Source of the DNA: Hemileia vastatrix
Lineage: Eukaryota > Basidiomycota > Pucciniomycetes > Pucciniales > Zaghouaniaceae
Direction of reading: 5' to 3'
Assembly (NCBI GenBank): GCA_030280995.1
Contig: JASXTE010000017.1
Coordinates: 23,512,498 to 23,576,497, forward strand
DNA: 64,000 nucleotides
The notes under the pieces: generated by a model
Told to the model about the DNA's origin: nothing
Database searches by the model: none
The model's input: the letters and a program-made list of their open reading frames with translations, nothing else
Shown here: positions 28,366 through 64,000 of the stretch, piece by piece
Position numbering within the stretch: position 1 is the first letter of the stretch
How the letters are laid out: each line of letters begins with the position of its first letter
Program-made: the position numbers and the translations under genes

Positions 28366-28770
28366 GGATAAAATCAACTAAAATAATAATCAATTTTTAA
28401 ATTCAAAAGAATTTAAAACCAGGATTATAATATAATCAACTGATGAAATAAATTTAAATTTTTTTATTAACAATTTTATGAGAATTATTATCAGGATTTA
28501 TAAATCAACTGAATACTTAACTACCAGGACTTAATATCAACTGAAATAATTAAATATGAATTTTTTAAAATTTTATTTTCAGGACAATTTGTCAACTGAA
28601 ACAAATAAATTTAAATTTTTCAGGATTTTTAAATCAACTGAATACTTAACTACCAGGACTTAATGTCAACTGAAATTATTAAATATGAATTTTATAAAAT
28701 TTTATTGTCAGGACAATTTTTCAACTGAAACAAATAAAATTAAATTTATCAGGACAAAAAGTCAACTTAA
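28366..28770. repeat. repeat block of CAGGA...TCAACTGA units
   Basis: About nine copies of a degenerate unit, CAGGA, 6-14 A/T-rich bases, then TCAACTGAA or TCAACT, occur at roughly 40-70 bp spacing. A larger 129-bp tandem duplication is clear (first CAGGATTTATAAATCAACTG at 28492, second at 28621). It sits just upstream of element D's Gag start and could belong to its leader. Confidence 0.65.
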
Positions 28771-29105: not shown

Positions 29106-29928
29106 TGAAGACTGTTCTAAAGTACTAAGCAGTAGACACAATGCGAGATGGGTTGGTTCTCCTTTTAATTTATAAAAAGAAGCGCCTTCCACTCTTATTT
29201 TTAAAGACAGTGTAATAATGTGTAACACTAATATTTGACTAGAAAGTTTATAAGTTGAGATGAGTTAAAGATAAGGAAACAAGCACTACTATCTGGAGAT
29301 TTCTATTCTTAACAAGCGCTATTATCCACAGCTACTCCCTCTTGAAGCGCTCTCTTTGAATTTGCCTTATTATAGTAAAAAAATATCTCTAATAATAGTT
29401 AATCCCACTGAATCTATATATTCTCTCTATGTTGCGCTCTTTCACTATACTATATAAAATACACACACAGACGCACAAACTCTAAAGACTCAGAAAATAC
29501 CTTTTAATATTCTCTAAAACAATTAATCACAAATGATCTAATATCTTATACTGGGTACTATGACTATAGCTACACGTATATCTCTATATTGATTTTTTTA
29601 TGATCTGCTTTTTAAAATGACAACTAATGCAATTTTGCTTATTTTATTAACTAAATAGATAGATCAACCAGCTCTCCCTTTGTCCCTACCTAATAGTCCT
29701 CCTTTTATATTCTTCCAGCGCTCAAGACACAGTTCCCTAATGGATCTCCAGCGCTGACTCTAGCGCCACATTAGTAAAACAATAACTATTTATTAGTATG
29801 CTACTTACACTGCTTGCAACAACTACAGCGCCTAAATCAGACCCTATAATTACTAACACTAGTATTAACTTGATTCACTGATTCTCCACATATGCGCTTT
29901 TAACTATACCTTGTTTTGTTTCAGCGCT
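29106..29928 (-). repeat. left LTR of B, outer part
   Basis: It matches 49435-50140 of the right LTR, sharing GTTCTAAAGTACTAAGCAGT, AAGAAGCGCC, CTACTCCCTCTTGAAGCGCT and ACACACACAGACGCACAAA. The left copy carries extra sequence around 29510-29680. It ends in TTTCAGCGCT, where A1 is inserted. Confidence 0.85.
29924..29928. other. target-site duplication of A1, left copy (GCGCT)
   Basis: GCGCT directly precedes the A1 LTR start ATGGTAAGG. The same five bases follow the A1 end TACCACA at 42606-42610. The uninterrupted site, TTTCAGCGCTACT, is present once in the other LTR of B (about 50131-50143). Five bases is the usual gypsy duplication length. Confidence 0.85.
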
Positions 29929-31022
29929 ATGGTAAGGTAAACTCTTACAGTCGCCTTGATGTAAGCAGAATCCGGAGGAGATATGTGGATTTAGCTGAAA
30001 ACCCCGTCCTTCCAATAAAAATAACAAAATGGGAATTCTAAATCACTAAGATAACCAATCTACTTGGATCTGATTGATGAAAATAATGAAACTCTAAAAT
30101 AATTAACACTTATTGAGATTTAAAGAAAGTGGCTGTTGATAAAAGAAATACTGATAACAACAATTAAGGTGTACCAGTGAAAGATCTGAAAAGATTGACT
30201 TTTATGTTTTTATAATAATTTGAATTTTTATGAGACAGCAATAATCAAGTCCCAGCGATGAAGACCTTTCTAAAGATACCCTGTATGAAGTGTGATTTAA
30301 ATTGTTGAGTAGTATTTCTAAAATGTTATATATAAAATATAAAGTTATAAGGGTATTACAAATTTATTTAATTTGTTGAGTAATAAAAAATGAGACCGTG
30401 GTGTTTAAAGATTAAGCTGTATATGTTCTGTCCCCCTTCAATTTCGAGTTTGAGAGGCCCTTAAGTATTCCTAGTCACGTGCCTAAGTTTTCCCCTCCAG
30501 AGCTCTCCCAGAGTCAATCCGGAGCCCGTACAGAGTCCGTACGGAGTCTGTCCGGACTTCCGGACTCAATTAGAACCTTAAAAACTATAATAAAAAATCT
30601 AAAAAAATTACTCATAATAGAGCTACTTCCCCTTTATATTGCTAACTAATTTTCGTAGTCTGCGCAGCTCTAATTACTTCGTGAAAATTCATCGAGGTTA
30701 AGTAATTTCTGAAAACGTAAATATTTCTATAAAACTTTAAAATTCATTTAAAAATATAAGAAAAATAGTAAAAATTCTGGGAAAATTTCCCAATACTCTT
30801 GAGTGACTCGACTTGATACTTATAAACTTTCCAGACCGTAAAAACAAGTTTTCTCCGTAAAATAAATTGTTTTGTGTAGGCATTTGCTCGTGACCAATTT
30901 CTTCATATTTAAAACTAAAATAAATTAACAAAACCCTTTTATAAAATAATAACGCCAATCTTTCACGCCGTAATAACTCCATTTAGGTACTTAGGTGCCA
31001 TACTAAACTTTAGGCTACCACA
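29929..31022 (-). repeat. 3' LTR of A1
   Basis: It starts ATGGTAAGGTAAAC and ends GGCTACCACA on the plus strand. It matches 41513-42605 and 58363-59464 along its full length. Near 30515-30566 it carries a cluster of GTACGGAGTC and TCCGGA palindromic units. The tract TCCTCCCTCC just inside (31023-31032) is the complement of the purine tract that primes plus-strand synthesis. Confidence 0.92.
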
Positions 31023-31688
31023 TCCTCCCTCCAATTGAGAATGTCCCCATTCTCATAACTTTGCATAAGTGGTTGAGCAATTCCAAAAGAATTATCTTTT
31101 CTAATAAAATAATTTGATAAATTTGTTTTAGCTGGTCTTCTTTTAATTCTTTATAATAAAAACGTTGTTTCTTCTTCTCTGGCTTGATATAACATAAAAT
31201 AAAATAATATAAATCTTGTGATGATTCCACTACTGAGAGCAAGGTTTGAATCCCTTCAGACTCCCATATACCAGTCTTCCTTCTTGTCACAGCATTGAGA
31301 GAGTGGATCTTCCTATGAGCCGAATACGCCTGATTCCAACCTCATAGGGCCCCCCACTGAGCCAAATTCTATGATTCCAATCTCGCCATAAGGTCCTCCA
31401 AGCTTCACACCAAAAATGGCCTAACAATGAGGCACTAAAAAAATCATTCCCTAAAATCCAACTACCATCCTAACTTCTGATTCCTTCATCACAATTTTTA
31501 AACTTTGCTATACAGCAAACCCATAAAATACTTTTGCCAGGCTTCCAATAATAATATTAACTTTAGACCATGTTAAAGCGCCACAAATTTCACCTAATTA
31601 CTCATTATTCTTTCCTTAGCATCATCACCACCTAAAATTTTAACCTCCTAAAGCTTATCAGCACCCAATTCCAGAAATAATTGAATAA
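31023..31688. other. A1 non-coding region beside the 3' LTR
   Basis: Nearly the same sequence occurs in A2 at 59465-60132. Its minus-strand frame (31015-31290) is short and also broken in A2, so I do not call a gene. It contains CCTCATAGGGCCCCCCACTG shared by both copies. Confidence 0.6.
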
Positions 31689-32158
31689 CCAGTTTAGAGT
31701 CTTAGTGGACAGTGATAAATTAAAAGATTGAATTGGGTTATCCAAACAAGATTGACATTCCAGTTTAAAGTCTTGGTGGACCGAACATATAATCGATTGC
31801 CAGTTTATGGTCTTGGTGGACCAAAGATCGTTTAGGTGCATAAATAACTTGATAAATTCCTAAATAAGGCCTAGGCTTGACCAAAGATTGAATAAACTTG
31901 ATAATCCAGTTTAATGTCATAGTGGACCAAACATTTGATCGACAATAATTCCAGTTTATGGTCTTGGTGGACCAATGAATTTTGAATTATCCTGCAGATA
32001 TTAATTTTCCAGTTTAAAGTCATAGTGGACTAAAACAATGAATGAACTACCAGTTTAAAGTCATGGTGGACCAAACATTTGATCGATAGTAAATCCAGTT
32101 TAAGGTCATGGTGGACCCAACAGCTTGATAACAGCCCAGTTTAAGGTCTTGGTGGACC
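31689..32158. repeat. hairpin minisatellite array in A1, GTC/GAC type (9 copies)
   Basis: Copies of CCAGTTTA, two bases, GTC, TTGGTG or ATAGTG, GGAC(C) start at 31689, 31760, 31800, 31916, 31951, 32009, 32050, 32095 and 32136. Each can form a small hairpin (GGTC/GACC or AGTC/GACT). The separating A/T-rich spacers vary in length (about 13-94 bp) and sequence. The matching array in A2 starts at 60133 and has 14 copies. A single further copy is at about 33842. Confidence 0.9.
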
Positions 32159-32252
32159 TAACAACTTCTCTATCCTTGAACCCAGATTTTGCCACCAGCT
32201 TTCTTCATCCTAGTTTCAAGTTTTCTTCTTCAAAAAAATATCTCCTAACAAG

Positions 32253-33266
32253 ATGAAACCTTCTGACTTCATTGCTTCAGCTGATCAATCTTGCAAATAT
32301 TGTGCTTTCACCCATAGGGAATGTATCTTCACTATCAACTGGCAAAAGCACACTTATAACAGGGCCTGTTTATCCTGCTATGAGAAGAAAAGAAAATGTT
32401 CTGGCTTGAATTGTGGTTCTTTCCCCATTACTGCTACTAGCTTCGCCGCCTTCTGCAAACCTCCTCCTTCTTCTTCACCTTCTACTCCACCCCCTATTCC
32501 ATCAACCTCTAAAGATCCCATCCCTTTTTCTCCATCAGCCTATTTAAATCTTTCTCCATCACCTAATCCTCTGGGTCCTTCTCTCCAATCTAGACTTGCT
32601 GCTACTCCCCCAAGAACTCTTGCTTCTCCCAGGGCCACACTTCAAACTTCTAACCATTCTTCTCCTACTTCCAACATCTTGAAGCACAAAAGGTCCTATA
32701 ATAGCCAGCAATCTTCATCTTCTCTTGTTTCATCCAAAAGGCCCAGAACATCTACTTCAAACACCAAATCCAACACCAGTCCTCCTCATCTATCAAAAAT
32801 AAAAAATTCTTTTTTAAACATAAAAAATCCCACTCCATTACCAAGTAAGCCGTTTATCTATGATCATGATAGTGTTGACACAGGTTAGTTGTCTCTTTTT
32901 ATTTTCTTAATCTTCAGGTTTTAATTTGCTGATATTTTAATTTGATAAGCGTCCACCGGTTCTCCAATTTCATATTCAGCTTATGAACTACCAGAACCTA
33001 ATCCAAGCTTCCCTAGAGTTCCAATTCACCTAGTGTCTGAAAAGCTTTTTGCCAAGTTTAATAACCTTATCGCTTATTTCCAACAATACCCTCCCTCTGA
33101 TAGATCAGAATCTTGTATGAGAGAGCAACTGTTAAGAGACCTTTTCAAAATAGCCAACTGGCTTCAACACTATCGTGACCGTGAAATAAGATTCGAATCC
33201 CAGGAAATCGATCAAGGTCCTTCTAAATTTTCTAATTTCGATTCTTCAAAAGATAACAACCCTTGA
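32253..33266 (+). CDS. antisense, spliced zinc-cluster-like protein inside A1 (315 aa)
   Basis: The exons 32253-32883 and 32950-33266 join in phase across a 66-bp intron (CACAG|GTTAGT...GATAAG). The N-terminus has a Cys-rich block: CKYCAFTHREC, then ACLSCYEKKRKC and a further Cys (about residues 15-55). This spacing resembles a binuclear zinc cluster and suggests nucleic-acid binding. A long Ser/Pro/Thr-rich segment with basic patches (KHKRSYN, SSKRPRTS) follows, then a helical C-terminus (EKLFAKFNNLIAYFQQ, LLRDLFKIANWLQHYRDREI). The frame is intact while all the element's own genes are broken. It lies opposite to the element's transcription, and A2 lacks it. An extra antisense retrotransposon gene or a captured host gene are both possible. 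Confidence 0.65.
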
Positions 33267-33358
33267 TGGGGTTCTTCCTGGTATGTAGCTTTCTTGAATA
33301 ATGTTTGAAAAATAAAATATAAACATCTAAACTACCTAAAACTAAAATACCTTTTATA

Positions 33359-33407
<49 letters not shown>

Positions 33408-34174
33408 GATAAATTTGAAATAAAAGTTAAAATTTAATTTTTAAAGAAAGATAAACGAATGTGAAAAGAAAGATAAAAAAAGTAATAAAAATTTTTAAAA
33501 TAAAAATTTTAAAAGATGCCCCCCGGCCATTTGATGAGCCATACCCTCGACATCATACCAACATCCAAGTGCAACTTGATGTGGTTACACAATTTTGAGA
33601 AATTGAAAAGAAAGAAAATAAATGAAAGTTTTTAGAAGATAATTTTTATAATGATGATCACTGGGTGGGCTCCCTCCAATTTATAAAAATGATTAGAGAC
33701 CACCAGTGAGCATCACCTTTACAATAATTCATAATATATGTTAAAGAAAATAAATCACAATCTAACATAAAAAAATCAAAAACAAAATAAAATAAAAAGA
33801 ATCTTGAATCCGGCATTGAGAGCGGTGTCTCTTGATTTGTTCCAGTTTATAGTCTTAGTGGACTTCCTATAATTAAAATACAAAGCCAGGATTCAACTAG
33901 AAACAGGAAAAATTTTGGAAACGAACATTATGGGGTAATTGTGTATAGAGCAGCCAGCCCATCAATTACCCCCACACTTGCCAATATTAAATTAAGAAGG
34001 TTCCCCTCTGAACACTTCTTCCAATAAATTTTTAAAATTTTCCAACACTATCTTCACCCATATTTTAAGAATTTTAAATTTTGAAAATTTTCAAAGAAGG
34101 TTTTCTCACATTTCGTTATGTTTCATCAACCATATGCAGTGTAACGACAGTAAAGTATTTTGATAAAAGAAGAT
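33267..34174. other. A1 non-coding region between antisense gene and hairpin array
   Basis: It begins with low-complexity sequence (TA repeat then a run of about 30 T, 33355-33402). From 33500 on it is nearly identical to A2 61320-62000, including CCATTTGATGAGCC and CAGCCAGCCCATCAATTACC. No gene was seen. Confidence 0.6.
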
Positions 34175-34521
34175 AGTTTATCCTCGTTGCGGAGGTCATC
34201 ATAAAATTTCGTTGATATCATAGTTTATCCTCGTTGCAGAGGTTAATAAAATTTAATAATTGTCATAGTTTATCCTCATTGTGGAGGTCATCATAAAATT
34301 TCATTGATATCATAGTTTATCCTCATTGCGGAGGACAATAAGATTTTTATAAACATCATAGTTTATCCTCATTGCGGAGGAATCCATTAAATTTTGTAGA
34401 TATCATAGTTTATCCTCGTTGCGGAGGTATCCATAAAATTTAATAAATTTGATAGTTTATCCTCATTGCGGAGATGTCCATAAAATTTCGTAGATATCAT
34501 AGTTTATCCTCGTTGCGAAGG
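34175..34521. repeat. hairpin minisatellite array in A1, CCTC/GAGG type (8 copies)
   Basis: ATAGTTTATCCTC, GTTGC or ATTGC, GGAGG starts at 34175, 34220, 34265, 34312, 34358, 34405, 34452 and 34499. The unit is about 46 bp, with spacers resembling TAAAATTTCGTAGATATC. The last copy overlaps the integrase end and supplies its final residues E-D-K-L and stop. A2 has only two copies (about 62002 and 62047). Confidence 0.9.
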
Positions 34522-35657
34522 TAGACTTCAGCACTCCTGGTGCCTCTAGGATAGAACCGTTTCACTTGATCGGCCACTACCCTCTTCTTCAATACTACTC
34601 CATCCAACTCTTCTAACACATATGAACCGCCGGAAACTTGCTCCTTGATTTTATACGGTCCATTCCACCTATCTGCAAACATCTTTCCCCACTGACTTTC
34701 CAAACTCCTATTATACACCAGGACCATATCACCTGGGTTCAAAGGTTTCCTTAATCAATGTGCCAACTGCTCATCCCAATATCTGACTGATTGATTTCGG
34801 ATCTTCATCATCTGCGAATATGCCTTTTCTAAATATTCTTCTTTCTTTTCTAGCTGCATCATTCTTGCACACAATAATTCATCAGTAGTTTTGACCATGT
34901 CCCAGTCAACTCCAAGATATGATTCAGCTTCTAAATCAACCGGTAAAACTGCTTTCTGTCCAAAAACAAGTTCATAAGGTGAAAATCCGGTCGTCCTTTT
35001 GGCAGTGATTCGATCAGCAAATAAAACTAAAGGTAAATTGTGCCTCCACTTTTCGGCACTTGTCCCACACATTTTAACTAAAGCATCCTTAATAACTTGA
35101 TGCCCTCTTTCAACCATGCCTTCAGCTTCAGGATAATATGGGGTTGCTACCCTAACCTTAGATCCAACTTTCAATACGGCCTCTTTAAACTCTGTCCCAA
35201 ATTCAGGACCTCCATCTACCGTTACCAACTTCATCACCCCATACCTATATACCCAATTATTCAAAAAAAATTCTGCCACATTTTTGGCAGTTAAATTAAT
35301 AAGAGGCGCTGCCTCTACCCAACCAGATAAATCATCTCTGGCCACAATTAAATATTTATACTGTCCCTCTTTTATATGAACGGCATCTAAACTAACTCTC
35401 CCAAAGAGCGTATATTCACCGGTTGCGCGTCCAGGTTCTTTTGGCCTTAAATAAATTCGTCTTTGACATTCTTTGCATGACTGAACCCACTGTTTAACAG
35501 CCATCTTCATGCCAGGCCACCAAAATCGATCAGAAATTCTTCTAAATGTTTCTCCAACGCCTCTATGCCCAAGATCTTCATGCAGTGATTTAAAAACTAA
35601 TTCTTGCCCCTTCTGTTGAGTTATAACTACTTGAGGATTTGGATACCTTCTCCTCAT
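34497..35657 (-). pseudogene. integrase of A1
   Basis: Integrase joins element DNA to the chromosome. The N-terminal zinc finger is LHEDLGH followed by CKEC. The catalytic core shows D in VSLDAVH, D in TVDGGPEF and E in YPEAEGMVERGH. The C-terminal domain has the GPY module WNGPYKIKE. A TGA at 34755-34757 separates the core from the C-terminal domain. A2 has CGA (Arg) at this codon, so the stop is a C-to-T change in A1. No chromodomain is visible. Another TGA at about 35661-35663, just before the start used here, is shared with A2. Confidence 0.85.
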
Positions 35658-35663
35658 TAAACG

Positions 35664-36719
35664 TCAACCAGATAGGTAGAACGTAGATGACTTCCCCTTG
35701 ATAGCCACCCATTCATCGTCTTCACACTCTTCTGGCCTCTCTAAAGTCAACAAATATTTGACTAACAAAAAATAAAATCCAGTCTGACACCAGACTTCAT
35801 CTTGAAAATCAATTAATATAACATCAATAGGGACTTCTCTATCACCAATATCACCTGCACATGAATGAGCCAATAATTGTTGACCCCTAAATAAATCTTT
35901 AATCGAGCTATGTCGACATTTTTCTTCTGAACCTTTGGATCCTTCGTAAACTGTATTCAAAAATGCCTCTTTCTCTTTACCCAACTTTTTATTTAAATTC
36001 TCTAATTCTCCAACATATACACCATTCCTTAATTTACTACTATCCCACACTACTAATCCATCTTCCTCTACATACACCACATCTTCTTCTACCTTCTTTC
36101 TACCGCATTTATCTACACCTTTTCCAACACCTTTATTAACATAAAAACTATTTTCCAGTTTATCCTCTTGGTGGAGGTCATCATCACCATAATCTAAACA
36201 CAATAATCCTGCCAGTTTAACCTCATGGGGGAGGTATGGAAAGTCTTCAGCTCCTTTAGTGCTGGCTTTGATAATAGGTATATCTTCATCAAACTCTTCT
36301 GAGTCTGAATCTTCTTCAGTGGGTGGTCTCCTTGATAAACCATCTGGCATAGTAAAAGTTTTTCCAGGCTTATGAACTAAATCAAACAAAAAATGTTTAA
36401 TAAAAGCTACCCATCTTGTCATGGGTGCTTTCAGTAAACTTGGGGAATTAATCATCTGGATTAATGATTTCACATCCACTTGCAACTCAAAATGTTGCCC
36501 CCACAAAATATGCTGAAGTTTCTTCAGTATTTTTGCCACACCACATAATTCCAATTTTGGTTGAGAATATCTTGATTCGACCTCAGTAAATACTACAGAT
36601 TCATACCTAACTGGCCTGATGTAACCAGCTTTATCCATCTGAGACAAAACCGCCCCAGCTGCAACCTGACTTGAATCAACTGCTAAATGAATTCTGCCAG
36701 CATCTTTTCCATAATCCAA
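35664..36719 (-). pseudogene. RNase H and linker of A1
   Basis: The RNase H part shows VDSSQVAAGAVLSQ, SRYSQPKLELCGV and VDVKSLIQMINSP, then HKPGKTFTMPDGLSRRP, typical of gypsy RNase H ends. An acidic linker follows, and two copies of the hairpin motif lie in it (36155-36177 and 36212-36234). They are read as DLHQEDKLENS and LPHEVKLAG. An in-frame TAA (just before 36719) separates it from the RT, where element B has an open frame (KDILLKKLEYG). The TGA at its end is shared with A2. Confidence 0.8.
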
Positions 36720-36731
36720 CTTGTGCAGGAC

Positions 36732-38768
36732 TTAATCCTTCCCCACAACCTCCTTCAACTTCACAAACGCCTTCTCACACTCTTCATCCCACTCCCAGTC
36801 TGCATCTTTTCTCGTTAAACGTCTCAATGGAGCTGCCAATGAAGAAAAGTCCTTAATAGACATTCTAACATATACGCAAACGCCTAAAAACCCTCTAACT
36901 TCGGTCGTATTCTTGGGTCTTGGCCAGGACTGAATTTTGTTAACTTTCTTCTTGGACATAATCCTACCCTCTCTACATACCACATGGCCTAATATTTCTA
37001 AGGCTGGCACACAACATGAAAATTTTGAACCTGAAATAGTTAAACCAGCCTCTTCAATTCGAAACAAGATTCTTTCTAAAGTAATTTCAAACTCCCAAAT
37101 GAATTTGCGTATCCCAGGATTCTCTTCCAACACCTGGTTATCGTTGTCGGTTGTTGGTCCCTTAATTCCTCCATCATCTATAAAGATTCCAACATATTGT
37201 GGAATTTCTTCTTGAAGGATCCAAGCCATCCGAGCTTGATAAACTGCAACCAAATTTGTTGCTCCTTGAGGTAATCTTGTTAACTGTAAACGTCCTAGTG
37301 GTGTATTGAATGTAGTGAGAGGCCTTGAGTCCGGATGTAACTCTCTCTCATCATATCCGCCCATAATATCTCCCAAACCATAACACACTCTCCCTGCAAA
37401 CGCTTCAACAAACTCCTCAGCACTAGGAGGTATCCCAGCATCCTTTATTGTAACCCTATTTAATTCCCTAAGATCATGAACAACTCTAAGCTTGCCATTT
37501 GGTTTCTTGATACAAAATACCAGACTAGAATAACTTGACGTTGATTGCTCATACAGTCCAGTGCGTATCCGTTCACTGACAACTTCAATATAGGATTCTT
37601 TTAATGCAGCCGGAATAAGAACTGGTTTCTGCTGCCATGGTTCATGACATACCACAGGAATCTTGTAAGGCTCCCCATAGGAATGCTTCAACACACCCCT
37701 CTCCTCTTCTACAAAAGCAATGGCTTTCTCTCGCTTGACCATCACATCCAACAACAACTTCTTCTCTTCTCCAGACAACAAACCATAAGGTCCAAAATCA
37801 ACAACACCCAGTCTCTCAAAAGTGATTCTTGACGTCTCAAAAAATTCAGGCAGATTCTTTACCAAGGGACTTTCATAAGGATCTCTTGATAACCTTGGTC
37901 TTCTCAAAGGTGGATTTAATTCAGCAGGTAGTGGTTCATTAATAGGTCGAACTTTATTTGCTACCTTCTTATATTTAGCTGCGTCCACATCTAAATAAGC
38001 TTGAGGTAAATCATTTACTTTTGTATCGCCATTAAAAATTTCATCAAATGAATCTTCTTCATCGTCAGAATCGGAGTAAGAAAAATTAGAAAAATATTTT
38101 ATTTCATGTTTAAATTTTACCCTTTTCTCCTTTCCCTTGTCTATATTATAAACAGATTTTCCAACACCTTTGCTTCCCTTATCCAACAGTAAATCACCTG
38201 TAAAGAAAGTTGGCAGTTTAACCTCTTGCTGGAGGACCGGAATTGAATTTTCACAAAAATTATTTTTTTGTGTTTTAATTATACCAAGATTTTTTATTGG
38301 ATTTTGATGTAATTTTTGCAGTTTACCCTCTTGCTGGAGGTCCATAATAGAAGGAGATACTTGCAGTTTAACCTCTTGCTGGAGGTCCGGAATAACATTT
38401 TCACATAAGTTATTTTTTTGTGTTTTAATTATACCAAGATTTTTAATTGTATTTTGATGTGATTTTTGCAGTTTACCCTCTTGTTGGAGGTCCAAAAACA
38501 TACCCTTCCAATTTTTATCCAACCTAATTTGGCCCATTTTGCCTTTTTCACCATTTTTAAATTTAATAGAAAAATAGGGTAAATCCAATAAACATATAGA
38601 AAAGTCCAAAACGTATTTGCACTCCAAAGTAATATTAACATAAAATAATTGAGAATCCACTTGAATTATCTCCAAGTGAGCTGACCTATTGCAATCCGGG
38701 ATCTCATCCTGAGGAGAGATTACAACATTAGAGTGATCAGCCCCTGCTACCCCAAAAAATGAGGGCAT
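36732..38768 (-). pseudogene. reverse transcriptase of A1 with repeat-bearing linker
   Basis: The first 200 residues or so are a linker containing four hairpin-motif copies (38213, 38318, 38363 and 38468), translated as repeats such as DLQQEGKLQK and VLQQEVKL. The RT follows: LRVVHDLRELN, GLGDIMGGYDERELHP, RLPQGATN and the catalytic FIDD in YVGIFIDDGGIKG, then EILGHVVCREGRI. The FIDD form (rather than Y-x-DD) is shared with element B, so it is a family trait. It is one base out of frame with the protease at an A6/T6 run (38754-38759). Confidence 0.85.
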
Positions 38769-39277
38769 CCATCCCTTTCCAACAAAAATAATTCACCAGA
38801 AGCCGTCCGTTTAATATGCCGCTTCTTGGTGCAAACACAACACTGGCACAGAGTAGTAGTCCCTGGCCGTGTTTCCCAACCTTCATCTCCAGGAGGCGCT
38901 AACCGCATATGTAACCTCCGCATATCTTCACCAGTGATCTCCAAACTAATCCCCATGCCAGCTTGATACCCTATCCTGGCCTCAAAATCCATCAAAAAAG
39001 GACCACCCAGAACAGTTTTGACTGATCCTCTGGCCACATAAAAGTGAACCTTACCAACAGATCCACCAATGCCTAACCTGACATGCTCAGCTGTGCCCAT
39101 CAGCTCTGTTGCATGTCCTCCAATACCTCTGAGGTTTCCCCCAGTCCCACTTTTAATTGGCAAACCTATACTCGTTGCTTGCTCCAATGAAATTAAATTA
39201 ATTTGAGACCCTGAATCGACCAAGGCCTTAACTTCTTTACCGTTAAGAGTTACCACCAGGTAACCCAGGGGAGTCAA
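38747..39277 (-). pseudogene. aspartic protease of A1
   Basis: The protease would cleave the polyprotein. The catalytic triplet is intact in VKALVDSGSQINLIS, and the hydrophobic-G motif is VLGGPFLMDF. The region ends with a Cys pair (CQCCVCTKK). No ATG opens it, because it is part of a Gag-Pol polyprotein. It is shifted one base from the upstream frame at a five-base run (39276-39280) and from RT at 38754-38759. Confidence 0.75.
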
Positions 39278-41335
39278 AAATGTGTATCTACATCTTCCCC
39301 AAACTTTTCAGAATTTTCACAAATATATTCCACCTCTCCAGTGGAAACCCAACGCCTCGTCGAATGCTCCTTTTGCTTTTCAGCAAGGGCCGAACTAATC
39401 GTAAATAACTCCCCCAAAGATAAGGGAATCTGCAGTTGATTCACCCTATTCAAAACTGCGTCCATCGCATTAGCTTGACCAGAAACTACTGGCCGCTCAT
39501 ACTGGACCTTTGATTTAACAACCTTGTCCCTGGGTACCTCTTGAGGTCCAACCGAGCCATCTTCACTTTCTATAACCCTAACTCCGTCACCAGCTTCTTG
39601 CACTAATCCTGATCCATTGCTAGTCCTTCTTACACCCTCCATTGGGATGGGACCGCTAAAACTTGGTCTGGGTAGAGACGCCAATGGTACGTCCTCCTCA
39701 GAATCCAAATCATCCTCTGGAATAGGCTCACCATTTAAATCAAACTTGCCATAACTAGGGGGCCCCATATCAGCTATCCCCTTCTGCATTTTATATAATT
39801 CGTCCTTAGAGTAAGGGTTCAATTTGTTGGCGGCAGTTTGAGCACTAGAATTTTTGTCCTTAGAGTAAGGGTTCACTTTGTTATTGGCCTTGCCAGTATT
39901 AGCCCTCAATTGACTCTGAATGCTACTCTTCGCTTTAGTAGCGGCTGCTTTTCTAGCAGCATTAACATCGTATTCGCCAGCCATACAACTACCCTCCACC
40001 TGGGCAACCCTTGCCAGCTCTAAACCACCAAAAGAAGTAGAAAATGTGGCTTTACTGACCTCTTTCTCTTTACCTTTGTCAGCTTTTCCACCATTACCAT
40101 TACCATTTTTTGCCACCCTTGGCACTAACATCTTCATCCGTGACCTCTTCAAATCTGGCTCTCCTTTCAGCCATTAAACTTCTTCTGACAAAATAAGAAG
40201 GAGACTTTCCATCGCCGGGCTTGATGAACAAACCATCAGGAAATTTATAAACTTTACCATCAAATAAAACTCGCCCAGCATCCATATCCTTATCAAGAGC
40301 AAAACAAACTGTTGCTCTATGCCCCCTCCTATTACAATAGGAGCACACCTTTGGCTCATTGTAGCCACCTCTATAACTACTTCCACCATTCCCACCATTT
40401 CTCCCATTGCCTGGGAAGCGGTTACCGTTATTATTGCCATTATAATTTTGACGTTCATACCCTCTAGACTGATAAGAAGTTGACGTCAACAAAGAAGCGA
40501 TTGGGGCCTTATTGGCCTTCTGGGTTTCTTGAACAAATATTTTTAACTGTTTAGTTAAATCAGACAAATGATCGACCATCTTATTATCTACATTGCCCTC
40601 CACTTTAGCAGCAGGTAATCCCATTTGTGCCTTCTTGGCCTCCTGGGCTTTGACCATAATATTGTTGTTTTCGGCCAAAACTTTGCTAACCTTGCTAACA
40701 TATTGAGTGCATGACTCTTGATATTTGTCCAATGCCAATAACTTTAGATGGGCTTGAATGTTGTCCTTGATAACCTCCAGAGCCGGCAGTTTCTGCTCAC
40801 CATTAGGCAGTTCCTTCATCAAATCTTTTCTTGAAAGATCCTTCAAGACATCCATTCAAATATCCCTACTGCATGCTGACCAAAACAAATCTTTTGCCTA
40901 GTTCTCATGCACTAACTCGTCCACCAGTATGAGATATTCCACCACTTCATTAAACTGAACACAGAGCTTTTTGAAGTCAGCCATAGAAGAAACTCCAACT
41001 TTTGCTTTCCAGTCTCCAACAATTTTATTGAGGTCCATCATAGTAAACCTAACACCCCATCTATCAACCATAGCTTTAGAAAGCTTAACCCAATCCTTGT
41101 CCTTAAATGCCTGCATAGCAATAACCTCTTTTTCCACCTCCCTATCAGCAATAAAAAACCTAACTTGCTTCACCATATCCACATGAGAAGCACCATCAAC
41201 AGCAGCAGGAGCTTCATACCTGCTAATGAACCATTTAACCTCCTCCCCATCAAACTTTGGGCCATCCCAAGAAACAATTCTAACTGAGGGAGTAAGAGGG
41301 TTAGAAGATCCAGAAGCAACAGCAGAAGAAGACAT
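39274..41335 (-). pseudogene. Gag of A1 and Gag-Pol spacer
   Basis: The Gag start at 41335 (MSSSAVASGSSNP) lies about 150 bp inside the primer-binding site. Residues 20-140 hold a Gag core (VRIVSWDGPKFDGEEVKWF). The zinc knuckle CSYCNRRGHRATVC follows a Gly/Asn/Arg-rich stretch at about 40360. TAG at 40898-40900 and TGA at 40856-40858 break the frame, yet both sides are in one phase. A six-base run at 40106-40111 shifts the frame before a Lys/Ser-rich spacer (39274-40152). Confidence 0.8.
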
Positions 41336-41490
41336 CCCAATATGTAATGAAAAGCGTTAACAATCGATAAAATAACAAGCTTCTTGCAGGCCAATAACAA
41401 AAATCCAATTAATGTTCCAGAAAATAAACCTCTTGCAGGCTAATAACGTTCTTGATCCAAGTAAGTCTTTAAAGAAAGCTAGAGAAATCA

Positions 41491-41510
41491 AACCCCACGT
41501 TGGGCACCAA
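41491..41510 (-). other. primer-binding site of A1
   Basis: On the minus strand TTGGTGCCCAACGTGGGG follows the end of the 5' LTR after two bases. A TGG-type start just inside the LTR is the usual position for tRNA priming. The priming tRNA is not identified. Confidence 0.7.
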
Positions 41511-41512
41511 CT

Positions 41513-42605
41513 ATGGTAAGGTAAACTCTTACAGTCGCCTTGCTGTAAGCAGAATCCGGAGGAGATATGTGGATTTAGCTGAAAACCCCGTCCTTCCAAT
41601 AAAAATAACAAAATGGGAATTCTAAATCACTAAGCTAACCAATCTACTTGGATCTGATTGATGAAAATAATGAAACTCTAAAATAATTAACGCTTATTGA
41701 GATTTAAAGAAAGTGGCTGTTGATAAAAGAAATACTGATAACAACAATTAAGGTGTACCAGTGAAAGATCTGAAAAGATTGACTTTTATGTTTTTATAAT
41801 AATTTGAATTTTTATGAGACAGCAATAATCAAGTCCAGCGATGAAGACCTTTCTAAAGATACCCTGTATGAAGTGTGATTTAAATTGTTGAGTAGTATTT
41901 CTAAAATGTTATATATAAAATATAAAGTTATAAGGGTATTACAAATTTATTTAATTTGTTGAGTAATAAAAAATGAGACCGTGGTGGTTAAAGATTAAGC
42001 TGTATATGTTCTGTCCCCCTCCAATTTCGAGTTTGAGAGACGCTTAAGTATTCCTAGTCACGTGCCTAAGTTTTCCCCTCCAGAGCTCTCCCAGAGTCAA
42101 TCCGGAGCCCGTACGGAGTCCGTACGGAGTCCGTCCGGACTTCTGGACTCAATTAGAACCTTAAAAACTATAATAAAAAATCTAGAAAAATTACAAATGA
42201 TAGAGCTACTTCCCTTTTATATTCCTAACTAGTTTTCGTAGTCTGCGCAGCTCTAATTACCCCGTGAAAATTCATCAACGTTAAGTAATTTCTGAAAACG
42301 TAAATATTTCTATAAAACTTTAAAATTCATTTAAAAATATAAGAAAGATAGTAAAAATTCTGGGAAAATTTCCCAAGGTTCTTGAGTAACTCGACTTGAT
42401 ACTTATAAACTTTTAAGACCGTAAAAATAAGTTTTCTCCGTAAAATAAATTGTTTTGTGTAGGCATTTGCTCGTGACCAATTTCTTCATATTTAAAACTC
42501 AAATAAATTAATAAAACCCTTTTATAAAATAATAACGCCAATCTTGCACGCCGTAATAACCCCATTTAGGTACTTAGGTGCCATACTAAACTTTAGGCTA
42601 CCACA
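41513..42605 (-). repeat. 5' LTR of A1
   Basis: It is the partner of 29929-31022, with the same ends ATGGTAAGG and TACCACA on the plus strand. It presumably contains the promoter driving leftward transcription, but no TATA element could be assigned with confidence. Confidence 0.92.
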
Positions 42606-43116
42606 GCGCTAGTTCCAGATTTGACTTATCCTAACGCTGCGTCTAGTTGCCTTAACTCTTGGGTAGTTTTACAATTGAGTCCCCACTCTCTTTTCTTTAA
42701 TACTAGATTTGTAGTTCTGACAGCTCGCTTTACTAGTTAGCCTTCTTCATTACTTGTCTCAGTAAGCTTCCCAACTGGCCGCAGTACAGCATACCATGCA
42801 CTTGAGTCGTCCTTAATCCATGACTTTCTTCTTAATGTGTAACACATACTTTTTAGAAAGCCCAAATCCATATTGTTTAGCGCTTTATGGTCCTAAATCA
42901 ATAACACACAATTCCTCATTGTGCAGCACATCTCGCTACAAAATCCGAGCACACAGACCTCAATCTTTTTCCGCGCTTCCATTTCCTTTGTTCCTTGAAA
43001 CACGCAAATACATATTATATTTTAACATTTCCTGCTGCACTAACTCCCCTTTGTTCTTCCTGGACTACGCGCGCTTATTGGTCTAAAATCACGCTTCCTG
43101 CAAGGCGCGTACCATA
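42606..43116 (-). repeat. left LTR of B, inner part, starting with A1's right target duplication
   Basis: Bases 42606-42610 are the second GCGCT. The rest matches 50141-50646: TGGGTAGTTTT/CGGGTAGTTTT, GAGTCCCCACTCTC, CTGGACTACGCGCGCT and GCGCGTACCATA/GACGCGTACCACA. Homology stops at ACCATA|ACG. Confidence 0.85.
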
Positions 43117-44522: not shown

Positions 44523-45467
44523 TCAACTACTACCTTCCAAATATAACCTTAACAACTCTACTCTCTCATCAGTAGATGCGTTGTCTTCAAAATACTCCCC
44601 CTCTTCGAGATGAGTACTACTTTCATGACTTCCCCTTGAATTATATTCATCATCTGACTCTTCCACTACCTTGCCTTGTGCACTTCTTGTCACTTTGTTA
44701 GCTTCAGTGTCCCCTAAATCCAGTTGCAGACTACCCTTGCTAAAAACATCCTCTGTATCGTCAATATCTAGTTTTAGATTTTTACGGACATTCCACGTTA
44801 CTTGTTTATTGTCATTGCAAACATTACTGCCTGCTAGTTTATTGTCATCGCGGAAGTTACTATCAAATCTTTCATAACAATAATCTATACCATTTACCCA
44901 TCTCTTATCTTCTTCAAATTCTTCAGCTTCCGAGTCCTCTTCACACAAAGGTCTTCTTGACAATGAATATGGCATAGTGAACAATTTTCCCCGCTTATGG
45001 ACCAAATCAAAAGGAAACAAATTAATCTGGGCTACCCACCTGGACATGGACGCAACTGGTAAACTCGGGCTAATAATCATTTGCACTAACGATAGTGCAT
45101 CAACCTGCATCTCAAAATGTTGCCCCCAAAGCATCCATTGTAGCTTCTTAAGAATTTTTGCTACTCCGCATAACTCCAGCTTGGTCTGAGAGTACCTGGA
45201 CTCCACTTTAATAAAAGTAATAGACTCATAAAGTACAGGTCTATCATTACCTTCCTCATCTTCCTGCATCAAAACTGCGCCCACGGCGGACACACTAGAA
45301 TCCACCGCTAGAGTAATTTTCCCAGCGCCTAGTCCATACTCCAATTTCTTCAAAAGAATATCTTTCCCTAAAATCCTTTTCAATAACTCGAATGACTCCT
45401 TGCATTCCTCTGTCCAATCCCATACAACATCTTTTCTCGTTAAGCGCTGTAAAGGTGAAGACAACAA
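44523..45467 (-). pseudogene. RNase H and linker of B
   Basis: It shows VDSSVSAVGAVLMQ, SRYSQTKLELCGV and HKRGKLFTMPYSLSRRP, close to A1's RNase H. The A1 motif TMPDGLSRRP reads TMPYSLSRRP here. The acidic linker contains two degenerate hairpin-motif copies (near 44795 and 44830), read as DNKQV and DDNKLAG. It continues the RT frame after a TGA at 45477-45479. Confidence 0.8.
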
Positions 45468-60132: not shown

Positions 60133-60952
60133 CCAGTTTAGAGTCTTAGTGGACAGTGATAAATTAAAATATTGAATTTAGTTATCCAAACAAGATTGAC
60201 ATTCCAGTTCAAAGTCTTGGTGGACCAAACATATAATCGATTTCCAGTTTATGGTCTTGGTGGACCAAAGATCGTTTAAGTGCATAAATAACTTGAAATA
60301 TTCCTAAGTAAGGCCTAGGCTTGACCAAAGATTGAATAAACTTGATAATCCAGTTTAATGTCATAGTGGACCAAAAATTTGATCGACAAGTAATCCAGTA
60401 TAAGGCCATAGTGAACCAATGAATGTTGAATTATCCTGCAGATATTAATTTTCCAGTTTAAAGTCATAGTGGACTAAACAATGAATGAACTACCAGTTTA
60501 AAGTCATGGTGGACCAAACATTTGATCGATAAGAAATCCAGTTTAAGGACATGGTGGACGCAACAGCTTGTTAATAGTCCAGTTTAGGGTCTTGGTGGAC
60601 CTAACATTTGATAACACTCCAGTTTAAGGTCTTGGTGGACCTAACATTTGATTTATATATAAAAAAAAATCTGTCTCCGAAAATATCCATAAAATCTTGA
60701 TCATCCTTGAAATTCAATTTAAAGTCTTGAAGGACTAACAGCTCCAATATAAAATCTTTAATGACAGTCTTGAAAATTAGCCAGTTTAAAGTCTTGGAGG
60801 ACTAAAAGCTCCAAAATTTGTATAAAAACCTTAAATAACGTCTTGAACAGTAGCCAGTTTAAAGTCTTGGAGGACTAACAGATCCAAAATATGTATAAAA
60901 AAACCTTAAAGAACGTCTTGAACAGTAGCCAGTTTAAAGTCTTGGAGGACTA
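60133..60952. repeat. hairpin minisatellite array in A2 (14 copies)
   Basis: Copies start near 60133, 60204, 60244, 60350, 60396, 60454, 60492, 60538, 60579, 60618, 60716, 60780, 60853 and 60929. The first ten are of the GTC/GAC type seen in A1. The last four have AGTC-TTGGAG-GACT stems and a shared spacer with AACAG and TCC. A1 has its antisense gene in place of these last four. 60953-61320 is low-complexity T/A sequence without a gene. Confidence 0.9.
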
Positions 60953-62001
60953 ACAGATATCTTGAAGTAAAATCCCATAGGTATTGAGCTCCCGTAGACC
61001 CTGTTTCCTGTCTAAACTATATGAATAAACTAAAAAGAATAGTGACTGAAAAATAAAACTAAGAAATATAATAATAATTTTGATTTAATTAATTAATTTT
61101 TTTTTTTATTTATTTTTATTTTTATTATTTATTTTATTTCTTTTTATTTATTTTTTTATTTTTTATTTTTATTTATTTTTAGTTTTAATTTGTTTTTAAT
61201 TTAAAATAAAAGATTTTAGAAAAGATAGTTTTGAAATAAAATTTAATTTTTAATTTTTAAAGAAAGATAAATGAATGTGAAAAGAATTAATAAAGAAGAA
61301 TTATCAAAATTAAAATTTTAAAAGATGCCCCCTGGCCATTTGATGAGCCGTACCCTCGACATCATACCCACATACAAGTGCAACTTGATGTGGTTACACA
61401 ATTTTGAGAAATTGAAAAGAAATGAAATGAAATGAAAGTTTTTAGAAGATAATTTTTATAATGATGATCACTTGGTGGGCTCCCTCCAATTTATAAAAAT
61501 GATTAGAGACCACCAGTGAGCATCACCTTTACAATAATTAATAATATATATTAAAGAAAAGAAATCACAATCTAACATAAAATAAAAAATAAAAAAACAA
61601 AATAAAATAAAAAGAATCTTGAATCCGGTGTTGAAAGCGGTTTCTCTTGATTTGTTCCAGTTTATAGTCTTAGTGGACTTCCTATAATTAAAAGACAAAG
61701 CCAGGATTCAACTAGAAACAGGGAAAATTTTGGAAACAAATATTATGGGGTAATTGTGTATAGAGCAGCCAGCCCATCAATTACCCCCACACTTGCCAAT
61801 ATTAAATTAAGAAGGTTCCCCTGTGAACACTTCTTCCAATAAATTTTTAAAATTTTCCAACACTATCTTCACCCATATTTTAAGAATTTTAAATTTTGAA
61901 AATTTCAAAGAAGGTTTTCTTGCATTTCGTTAAGTTTCATCACAGTTTTGTCGCCCATATGCAGTGTAACAATAGTAAAGTATTTTTGATAAAAAAAAAA
62001 G

Positions 62002-62069
62002 ATAGTTTATCCTCGTTGCGGAGGTCAATAAAATTTGATAAATGTCATAGTTTATCCTCATTGCGGAGG
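62002..62069. repeat. CCTC/GAGG hairpin motif in A2 (2 copies)
   Basis: ATAGTTTATCCTC plus GTTGCGGAGG and ATTGCGGAGG at 62002 and 62047. The second overlaps the integrase end and supplies its stop, as in A1. Confidence 0.88.
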
Positions 62070-63205
62070 AAGACTTCGGCACTCCTGGTGCCTCTAGGAT
62101 AGAAATGTTTCACTTGATCGGCCGCTACCCTCTTCTTCAATACTACTCCATCCAACTCTTCTAGCACATATGAACTGCCAGAAACTTGCTCCTTAATTTT
62201 ATACGGTCCATTCCACCTATCTGCAAACATCTTTCCCCACTGACTTTCCAAACTCCTATTATACACCAAGACCATATCTCCTGGGTTCAAAGGTTTCCTT
62301 AATCGATGTGCTAACCGCTCATCCCAATATCTAACTGATTGATTTTGGATCTTCATCATCCGCGAATATGCCTTTTCTAAATATTTTTCTTTCTTTTCTA
62401 GCTGCATCATTCTTGCACACAATAATTCATCAGTAGTTTTGACCGTGTCCCAGTCAACTCCAAGATATGATTCAGCTTCTAAATCAACCGGTAAAACTGC
62501 TTTCTGTCCAAAAACAAGTTCATAAGGTGAAAATCCGGTCGTCCTTTTGGCAGTGATTCGATCAGCAAATAAAACTAAAGGTAAATAGTGCCTCCACTTT
62601 TCGGCACTTGTCCCACACATTTTAACTAAAGCATCCTTTATAACTTTATGCCCTCTTTCAACCATGCCTTCAGCTTCAGGATAATATGGGGTTGCTACCC
62701 TAACCTTAGATCCAACTTTCAATATGGCCTCTTTAAACTCTGTCCCAAATTCAGGACCTCCATCTACCGTCACCAACTTCATCACCCCATACCTATATAC
62801 CCAATTATTCAACAAAAATTCTGCCACATTTTGGCAGTTAAATTAATAAGAGGCGCTGCCTCTACCCAACCTGATAAATCATCTCTGGCCATAATTAAAT
62901 ATTTATACCGTCCCTCTTTTATATGAACGGCATCTAAACTAACTCTCCCAAAGAGCGTATATTCACCGGTCGCGCGTCCAGATTCTTTTGGCCTTAAATA
63001 ACTTCTTCTTTGACATTCTTCGCATGACTGAACCCACTGTTTAACAGCCATCTTCATGCCAGGCCACCAAAATCAATCAGAAATTCTTCTAAATGTTTCT
63101 CCAACGCCTCTATGCCCAAGATCTTCATGCAGTGATTTAAAAACTAATTCTTGCCCCTTCTGTTGAGTTATAACTACTTGAGGATTTGGATACCTTCTCC
63201 TCATT
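62045..63205 (-). pseudogene. integrase of A2
   Basis: Close to A1 integrase. The junction HRLRKPLNPGDMV is intact where A1 has TGA. It is broken elsewhere: TGA at 63073-63075 (A1 has CGA at 35526-35528), and loss of one base in a run near 62829 (A1 has five T, A2 four) shifts the frame after NLTAK. The catalytic residues VSLDAVH, TVDGGPEF and EAEGMVERGH are all present. Confidence 0.85.
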
Positions 63206-63210
63206 AAACG

Positions 63211-64000
63211 TCAACCAGATAGGTAGAACGTAGATGACTTCCCCTTGATAGCCACCCATTCATCGTCTTCACACTCTTCTGGCCTCTCTAAAGTCAACAA
63301 ATATTTGACTAACAAAAAATAAAATCCAGTCTGACACCAGACTTCATCTTGAAAATCAATTAATATAACATCAATAGGGACTTCTCTATCACCAATATCA
63401 CCTGCACATGAATGAGCCAATAATTGTTGACCCCTAAATAAATCTTTAATCGAGCTATGTCGACATTTTTCTTCTGAACCTTTGGATCCTTCGTAAACTG
63501 TATTCGAAAATGCTCTTTCTCTTTATCCACCTTTTTATTTAAATTCTCTAATTCTCCAACATATACACCATTCCTTAATTTACTACTATCCCACACTACT
63601 AATCCATCTTCCTCTACATACACCACATCTTCTTCTACCTTCTTTCTACCGCATTTATCTACACCTTTTCCAACACCTTTATTAACATAAAAACTATTTT
63701 CCAGTTTATCCTCTTGGTGGAGGTCATCATCACCATAATCTAAACACAATAATCCTGCCAGTTTAACCTCATGGGGGAGGTATGGAAAGTCTTCAGCTCC
63801 TTTAGTGCTGGCTTTGATAATAGGTATATCTTCATCAAACTCTTCTGAGTCTGAATCTTCTTCAGTGGGTGGTCTCCTTGATAAACCATCTGGCATAGTA
63901 AAAGTTTTTCCAGGCTTATGAACTAAATCAAACGAAAAATGTTTAATAAAAGCTACCCATCTTGTCATGGGTGCCTTCAGTAAACTTGGGGAATTAATCA
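63211..64000 (-). pseudogene. RNase H end and linker of A2 (cut by window edge)
   Basis: From the edge it reads TRWVAFIKHFSFDLVHKPG, DGLSRRPPTEEDSDSEEFDE and the same two hairpin-motif peptides as A1. A one-base deletion near 63511 (TGCTCTTTC against TGCCTCTTTC in A1) shifts the frame after DKEKE. The end LAHSCAGDIG to FYLSG and the following TGA are identical to A1. Confidence 0.8.

What the first reader, a model, noticed from the sequence alone, without database searches (positions are those of the whole stretch)
31689..34521. Dispersed hairpin minisatellite with covarying stems in element A
A 22-25 bp unit, AGTTTA plus a 4-bp stem, 5-6 nt loop and complementary stem, occurs in three forms: CCTC/GAGG, GGTC/GACC and AGTC/GACT. 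Changes on one stem side are matched on the other. Units are separated by variable A/T-rich spacers, so arrays look superficially CRISPR-like. Compensatory change suggests the folded form matters, perhaps in element RNA packaging, dimerisation or in spreading of the unit.
Basis: partly seen in the sequence, partly recalled or inferred. Interest (0 to 1): 0.85.

Follow-up and report, generated by a model that had tools for sequence, protein, structure and literature searches.

The report
Palindromic motif arrays in fungal retrotransposon
A jumping element in a large fungal genome carries many copies of a short palindromic DNA word, in its non-coding parts and in its own genes, next to a back-to-front gene for a probable DNA-binding protein, which suggests that the element may mark its own copies for its own regulator.

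Summary
The units are real. The interval holds 18 copies of a 21-nt unit, AGTTTA-N-[4]-[6 nt]-[4]; 12 are perfectly paired, 6 are not. The host genome (748 Mb, probably a rust fungus) holds 137,111 matches to the core pattern, against 381 to the reversed pattern. In every sampled locus where gag or pol was found, the units lie antisense to it in related Ty3/gypsy elements.

The stem covariation is real but shallow. Of 134 AGTTTA sites with complementary arms in 303 kb, 133 are the three known forms. Position 2 is almost always C-G or G-C, and position 1 often mismatches. A few founder variants explain this.

Two findings go further. Units inside pol keep one reading frame; their silent positions hardly vary while amino acids do, so selection seems to act on the nucleic acid. 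And the 3' array ends about 115 bp before an antisense ORF with a Zn2Cys6-like motif: the 150 best-scored of 8,189 genomic candidates are full length without stops, and a diverged homologue sits at the same place in another subfamily.

Best explanation (0.4): palindromic binding sites for the element's own antisense-encoded protein, in the manner of VANC. RNA hairpins are the main rival. No binding was shown.

The parts
29924..42610 (-). Element A: Ty3/gypsy LTR retrotransposon with 5-bp target duplication GCGCT (29924-29928 and 42606-42610); LTRs 29929-31022 and 41513-42605; gag-pol on the - strand
   Evidence: LTR alignment 96.9% over 1096 bp; LTR ends and target duplication located; Pfam hits
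31691..32158 (+). 3' array: nine units, GGTC/GACC, AGTC/GACT and mixed classes; the last unit starts 115 bp before the ATG of the antisense ORF
   Evidence: similar geometry in 16 further copies
33844..33864 (+). single unit AGTC TTAGTG GACT
34175..34521 (+). eight units of class CCTC/GAGG (two imperfect), spacing 45-47 bp, at the pol 3' end
36157..36234 (+). two units inside the RNaseH-integrase linker (coding on the - strand, LHQEDKL and LPHEVKL)
38215..38490 (+). four units inside the PR-RT linker (coding on the - strand, LQQE[VG]KL), spacings 105, 45, 105 (multiples of 3)
32253..32888 (+). antisense ORF (211 aa) with a CX2CX6C-X14-CX2CX6C zinc-cluster-like motif
   Evidence: homologue in L029; 150 of 150 scored genomic copies open, out of 8,189 candidates; pN/pS 0.18 in 17 copies
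32964..33266 (+). possible second exon of the antisense ORF (open frame of 100 aa)
   Evidence: translation; splicing not tested
34755..35657 (-). integrase ORF (H2C2 above cut-off; rve 32.5 bits, just under its cut-off of 32.6)
35664..36719 (-). RNase H ORF
36732..38768 (-). PR-RT linker plus reverse transcriptase
38747..39277 (-). aspartic protease
39274..40855 (-). presumed gag ORFs, by position
   Evidence: no Pfam hit at 0.001; CCHC knuckle far below cut-off
60135..63780 (+). 18 units in a second copy cut by the window end, without detectable antisense ORF

Best explanation
The unit is a palindromic recognition site: an AGTTTA box followed by two inverted half-sites, (G/C)TC and GA(C/G), separated by 6 bp. 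It is dispersed through a Ty3/gypsy retrotransposon and bound as DNA by the protein that the element encodes in antisense between pol and the 3' LTR. Binding to the 3' array would control the antisense gene's own promoter. Binding along the body would set expression or chromatin state of all copies, including deletion derivatives, much as VANC proteins act on motif arrays in VANDAL elements. Arrays grow and shrink by whole units, probably by strand transfer during reverse transcription. Shown: the units, low silent variation in the pol units, the antisense ORF, its open copies and its near-constant distance from the array. Inferred: DNA binding, self-regulation, anti-silencing, the route of array change.
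For: Pol-linker units (39 of the 49 listed; the other 10 lie at the pol end, where translation is uncertain): codon 1 CTC in 36 of 39, codon 4 GAG in 38, codon 5 ends in T in 39, codon 6 AAA in 39, while codons 2, 3 and 5 change amino acid freely. In-frame translation was seen for the window and L029. Third bases of codons with the same amino acid agree, inside units detected in both partners and elsewhere: L019 11 of 11 and 472 of 921; L029 22 of 23 and 389 of 774; L015 31 of 35 and 458 of 663; L011 22 of 23 and 705 of 927; L030 24 of 27 and 733 of 990; L028 45 of 46 and 1406 of 1521; second window copy 15 of 15 and 422 of 430. Without requiring a unit in the partner, five of these comparisons: 14 of 18 and 574 of 1062 (L019), 19 of 24 and 469 of 886 (L029), 31 of 35 and 548 of 769 (L015), 20 of 21 and 831 of 1088 (L011), 25 of 28 and 862 of 1161 (L030); p 0.008 to 0.048. 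Antisense ORF: 150 of 150 scored genomic copies full length without stops, out of 8,189 candidates; 17 copies give pN 0.011, pS 0.062; homologue at the same place in a subfamily with about 62% identity over the PR-RT ORF, 48% over 46 aa at E 8e-11. In 16 of 16 fetched copies and the window a unit array lies upstream; the nearest unit starts 113-123 bp from the ATG in 16 of these 17 and 156 bp in one. Requiring only the box, complementary arms carry TC/GA inside in 133 of 134, while loop positions 3-5 vary. PDB profile search: the only hit is the Zn2Cys6 factor AlcR, both halves matching in swapped order, E 8.6, not significant.
Against: No binding was tested. The protein reaches no Pfam cut-off, has no homologue in two searches of 5.8 billion proteins and gives a poor model (pLDDT 58). 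The antisense ORF was found in only 2 of 11 element copies whose 3' region I held. Sites also lie inside coding sequence, unlike the mainly non-coding VANC21 motifs. Three arm classes with the same box are unusual for one DNA-binding protein. Box and loop make the site asymmetric. The units were found through box, inner TC/GA, loop positions 1, 2 and 6, so their conservation at those positions is partly selected for by the search; in the partner-blind test the contrast is weaker. Within 14 aligned recent copies, unit columns are not clearly less polymorphic than spacers (15 of 100 box, stem and loop columns against 52 of 224). Copies for pN/pS were taken from the best protein scores, which lowers the ratio.
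Confidence: 0.4

Rival explanations
1. RNA hairpins: the unit folds in the element's genomic RNA and is a dispersed cis signal, for example bound by Gag for packaging. Non-autonomous derivatives keep it for that reason.
For: Arms complementary above independence and above chance with only the box required. In each locus where gag or pol was found the units have one orientation, as an RNA signal would need. Hairpin present in the predicted fold of 85 (plus strand) and 86 (minus strand) of 101 units. Gag-bearing derivatives L010 and L031 keep units; no pol like that of element A was found in them, apart from a 25% RT match in a stretch of L010 that L031 lacks. AGTC/GACC (a G-U pair in the sense RNA) has 5,536 copies, GGTC/GACT 304. 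Dispersed stem-loop packaging signals are known in RNA viruses (PMC6281560, passages read).
Against: Only three arm types among 133 of 134 complementary pairs; inherited mismatches at position 1 include T.C, A.A, A.G and C.T. The loop centre is variable. Stems of 4 bp, mean -3.3 to -3.9 kcal/mol. No Rfam match at gathering scores.
Confidence: 0.27
2. Non-adaptive minisatellite: short repeats multiply and are homogenised by strand transfer in reverse transcription, and settle where insertions are tolerated (linkers, 3' untranslated region).
For: 3' untranslated tandem repeats of such a supposed origin are common in plant Tat elements (PMC7004042, passages read). Arrays lose whole units in register (L041, L043, L045). 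The linkers look long beside three relatives read by eye, so insertions seem tolerated there. Recent unit columns are not clearly quieter than spacers.
Against: Silent positions vary little while amino acids change. Sites keep their own loops (for example ATGGGG at the second RNaseH-integrase unit in window, L011, L015, L028, L029 and L030), so site-to-site homogenisation does not readily explain conservation.
Confidence: 0.22
3. The unit is itself mobile, a miniature palindrome that inserts into new sites.
For: Dispersal to several sites of one element.
Against: No unit of opposite orientation was seen within an element; in the 20 evenly spaced stretches units were seen only with related elements, except two at the edge of L020 that I could not assign. 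Target duplications were not sought.
Confidence: 0.06

Closest known systems
VANDAL21 / VANC21 anti-silencing system of Arabidopsis (PMC5735166; passages read)
   Different: VANDAL is a DNA transposon (recalled). Here an LTR retrotransposon, a zinc-cluster-like protein encoded in antisense, a palindromic motif, sites also inside pol, and binding not shown
Tat-lineage plant Ty3/gypsy elements (Ogre, Grande, Retand) with antisense additional ORF and 3' tandem repeats (PMC7264820 passages; PMC7004042 passages; lineage membership of Grande and Retand recalled)
   Same: Antisense ORF between pol and 3' LTR; hypervariable tandem repeats behind pol
   Different: Host fungal; one motif shared between 3' region and pol linkers; ORF has a zinc-cluster-like motif
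Fungal Zn2Cys6 regulators that bind inverted triplets (PPR1 type, 6-bp spacing; recalled)
   Same: CX2CX6C twice; inverted half-sites at 6 bp
   Different: Cluster halves in swapped order; below every family cut-off
Dispersed RNA packaging signals of RNA viruses (PMC6281560; passages read)
   Same: Many stem-loops with a shared motif along one genome
   Different: Arms here come in three forms only and the loop centre varies; no assembly evidence

Membership tests
Structured RNA family | arms complementary above independence | tested here: met
Structured RNA family | many independent compensatory changes along the stem | tested here: not met
   three arm types in 133 of 134; A/T on both sides of position 2 in 299 of 137,111, not clearly paired; no tree of events was built
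Structured RNA family | match to a known Rfam family | tested here: not met
   window 29500-64000, gathering scores
VANC-like self-recognition system | family-specific motif arrayed in one orientation | tested here: met
   (two units at the edge of L020 not assigned)
VANC-like self-recognition system | conserved intact element-encoded candidate binding protein | tested here: met
   (copies chosen among the best scoring); present in 2 of 11 copies held before targeting it
VANC-like self-recognition system | sequence-specific binding to the motif | not testable with these tools
   no assay available
Tat-type LTR element | Ty3/gypsy pol, antisense ORF before 3' LTR, 3' tandem repeats | tested here: met
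Tat-type LTR element | phylogenetic place in the plant Tat lineage | tested here: inconclusive
   best named RT relatives are fungal, Puccinia striiformis 73% and Austropuccinia psidii 67%, which speaks against; no tree built
Zn2Cys6 domain | Pfam Zn_clus gathering score | tested here: not met
   9.3 and 10.9 bits against 21
CRISPR array | near-identical repeats with spacers of near-constant length | tested here: not met
   start-to-start spacings 40-106 bp in the 3' array, units differ

The most novel reading that the evidence does not exclude
A retrotransposon-encoded antisense zinc-cluster protein recognises about 137,000 copies of its own palindromic site in one fungal genome. The site is under enough selection to be written into the element's own pol gene in a fixed frame, which would be a self-recognition and anti-silencing system of an LTR element.
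Probability: 0.35. Interest if true: 0.8.

Novelty: new variant of a known kind. Interest (0 to 1): 0.6.

Why it matters
A review of antisense ORFs in plant LTR elements calls their functions still unknown (PMC7264820, passages). Here an antisense ORF and 3' tandem repeats occur together in a fungus at a near-constant distance, with a motif constrained at silent coding positions and a candidate reader of that motif. This makes the function of antisense ORFs in LTR elements testable, and may help explain how such a family spread in a very large genome.

Tried and rejected
Known RNA families: none. Peptide footprint of the unit in related pol proteins: among 120 listed relatives 13 matched the regular expression, which I read as a different, conserved RT-proximal motif in most and scattered matches in the rest; so the coding units look lineage-specific, though no DNA of those relatives was at hand and many of the proteins are partial. 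Searches for related DNA in viral and prokaryote contigs: none. Plasmid search: three records with distant integrase matches. Homologues of the two antisense proteins: none. Structure model of the zinc part: too poor to use. Unit-versus-spacer comparison of 3' regions: inconclusive because units misalign; unit columns were more alike in 7 of 10 pairs and less alike in 3. Strand asymmetry of transitions as a control for the A.C excess: 602 A/G and 530 C/T differences summed over the 10 pairs, yet the A.C excess comes mainly from two founder sites, so it is not evidence of wobble selection. Protease-site or peptide function of LxxEDKL disfavoured because silent sites hardly vary and amino acids do. 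Genome-wide counts of AGTC/GACT, GGTC/GACC and G-C at position 2, and a genome search with the L029 antisense protein, did not complete, so the table of pairs is incomplete.

Full report
What is there. The window lies in a 747.6-Mb assembly of 791 contigs. Among named sources the RT of element A matches rust-fungus proteins best (Puccinia striiformis 73%, Austropuccinia psidii 67%), so the host is probably a rust fungus; the species is unknown. Element A (29924-42610) is a Ty3/gypsy LTR element with 96.9% identical LTRs, a 5-bp target duplication and pol on the minus strand. The finding's interval is its 3' region, between integrase and 3' LTR.

The unit. A profile search found 189 matches at E<=2 in the window, 23 stretches of 7-10 kb and four 3-kb loci; a few are weak or out of register. 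The unit is AGTTTA-N-s1 s2 T C-W T N N N G-G A t2 t1. Information content in 104 unique units: box 1.6-1.9 bits, s3/s4/t4/t3 1.6-1.9, loop position 2 1.84, loop position 6 1.31; the others 0.1-1.0. Box, inner stem and loop positions 1, 2 and 6 were also the search criteria, so their figures are inflated. A scan that requires only AGTTTA finds 452 sites in 303 kb; 134 have complementary 4-bp arms, 61 CCTC/GAGG, 55 AGTC/GACT, 17 GGTC/GACC and one other; the reversed sequence gives 2 of 513. Genome-wide, 137,111 matches to the core pattern against 381 for the reversed pattern. Units occurred in 6 of 20 evenly spaced 10-kb stretches of one contig. Five of the six hold gag or pol matches to element A (L011, L015, L019, L020, L028). 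The sixth, L010, is a derivative with a presumed gag ORF 41-42% identical over 109 aa to those of element A, L019 and L028, and no pol like that of element A; its 25% RT match lies in a stretch that the related L031 lacks. In each locus where gag or pol was found the units run antisense to it; two units at the edge of L020 could not be assigned, and L001, L003, L006 and L008 were not searched for gag or pol.

Covariation. In 101 unique units, positions s1:t1 pair in 78 (38 expected from independence), s2:t2 in 94 (47 expected), and the next position outwards in 27 (37 expected). s3:t3 and s4:t4 hardly vary, so they say nothing. Genome-wide, s2:t2 is C-G in 54,365, G.G in 365, and A/T on both sides in 299 against 152 in the control. 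Of the 100 of those 299 that were listed, 59 pair, against 52 expected (p 0.12), among them 13 ATTC/GAAT, 7 CATC/GATG and 7 CTTC/GAAG, so compensated A-T pairs exist but are rare and not clearly favoured. G-C at position 2 was not counted because the search did not complete. In the held sequences class CCTC/GAGG lies in pol, just behind it, and behind gag in L010 and L031; AGTC/GACT and GGTC/GACC lie in the 3' region. AGTC/GACC has 5,536 copies, and the 100 listed are mainly two sites of one lineage. GGTC/GACT has 304 copies, the 100 listed being scattered. Other inherited mismatches are T.C, A.A, A.G and C.T. I conclude that pairing is real, that very few founder states explain nearly all of it, and that ongoing compensation is not shown.

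Selection on the nucleotides. One search lists 49 units that I assigned to pol; I set aside the 10 at the pol end, because the frame there is broken in the window copy and stops at the unit edge in L029. Of the 39 linker units, all can be read as L-x-x-E/K-x-K-L in one frame, one with a stop at the second codon; codon 1 is CTC in 36, codon 4 GAG in 38, codon 5 ends in T in 39 and codon 6 is AAA in 39, while codons 2, 3 and 5 vary in amino acid. Third bases of codons with the same amino acid agree in 11 of 11 (L019) and 22 of 23 (L029) inside units found in both partners, against 472 of 921 and 389 of 774 outside; for closer partners the contrast is smaller: L015 31 of 35 and 458 of 663, L011 22 of 23 and 705 of 927, L030 24 of 27 and 733 of 990, L028 45 of 46 and 1406 of 1521, second window copy 15 of 15 and 422 of 430. 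Without requiring a unit in the partner, in the five partners tested, the contrast is weaker but has the same sign in 5 of 5: unit codons 14 of 18, 19 of 24, 31 of 35, 20 of 21 and 25 of 28, p 0.008 to 0.048. Sites keep their own loops across subfamilies, which argues against simple homogenisation. Against this reading, in 14 aligned recent 3' arrays units are not clearly quieter than spacers, and in alignments of 3' regions unit columns were more alike than the rest in 7 of 10 pairs but less alike in 3 (units misalign).

The antisense gene. An ORF of 211 aa on the plus strand begins at 32253, 115 bp from the start of the last unit of the 3' array. Its zinc-cluster-like motif (CX2CX6C twice, the basic half second) was seen by eye and by pattern. 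Pfam Zn_clus is below cut-off, and the single PDB hit, AlcR, is not significant but aligns both halves in swapped order. A homologue lies at the same place and orientation in L029 (48% over 46 aa, E 8e-11), an element with about 62% identity over the PR-RT ORF and 76% over integrase. Of 8,189 candidate places in the genome the best 150 were scored; all 150 cover the query and have no stop. Sixteen of these were fetched, and all 16 carry units upstream; the nearest starts 113-123 bp before the ATG in 15 of 16 and 156 bp in one, with single units missing in register or undetected in a few. With the window copy, pN/pS is 0.18 overall and 0.12 in the zinc part; choosing from the best protein scores biases this downwards. 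Of 11 element copies whose 3' region I held before targeting the ORF (window A, the second window copy, L001, L003, L006, L010, L015, L020, L029, L030, L031), 2 have it. The others would depend on it in trans, if it acts.

Reading. Three facts must be joined: signs of nucleotide-level constraint on a motif spread through coding and non-coding parts; arms kept as inverted half-sites with a free loop centre; and an antisense gene for a probable DNA-binding protein, open in many copies, at a near-constant distance from an array. [quoted passage not shown] RNA hairpins explain orientation and pairing and remain possible. A purely passive minisatellite does not easily explain quiet silent sites.

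Known or new. Plant elements of the Tat kind also pair an antisense ORF with 3' tandem repeats, so the architecture is a variant of a known kind. My paper searches for this combination in rust or other basidiomycete fungi and for hairpin minisatellites in fungal retrotransposons listed nothing that described it; I judged those hits by title and start of abstract only, and the library holds open-licence papers only.

Noticed in passing
window 44836-44856: A weak unit (TGTC ATCGCG GAAG, E 0.19) sits just past the RNaseH match in a more distant related element; similar TTGTC...GGAG forms recur genome-wide, perhaps a fourth arm class.
   Followed up: partly
G000, listing: Rare fully paired forms ATTC/GAAT, CATC/GATG and CTTC/GAAG among matches with A/T on both sides of position 2; whether they belong to small lineages with their own arm class was not followed.
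   Followed up: partly
L010 154-3025 and L031 13-3160: A derivative family with a presumed gag ORF and no pol like that of element A keeps 3' units and CCTC units behind gag.
   Followed up: partly
window 28488-28754: A 129-bp tandem repeat containing another short palindrome (CAGTTGACAAATTGTCCTG on the minus strand), outside element A and not related to the unit by eye.
   Followed up: no
window 51172-51325: Two identical 76-bp tandem copies.
   Followed up: no
window 41494-41512: Putative primer binding site TTGGTGCCCAACGTGGGG (sense) next to the 5' LTR; read by eye.
   Followed up: no
G000 C26 61287794-61317743: Four identical AGTTTAAGGTCATGGTGGACT matches about 10 kb apart on one strand, suggesting a tandem array of elements or a segmental repeat.
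   Followed up: no
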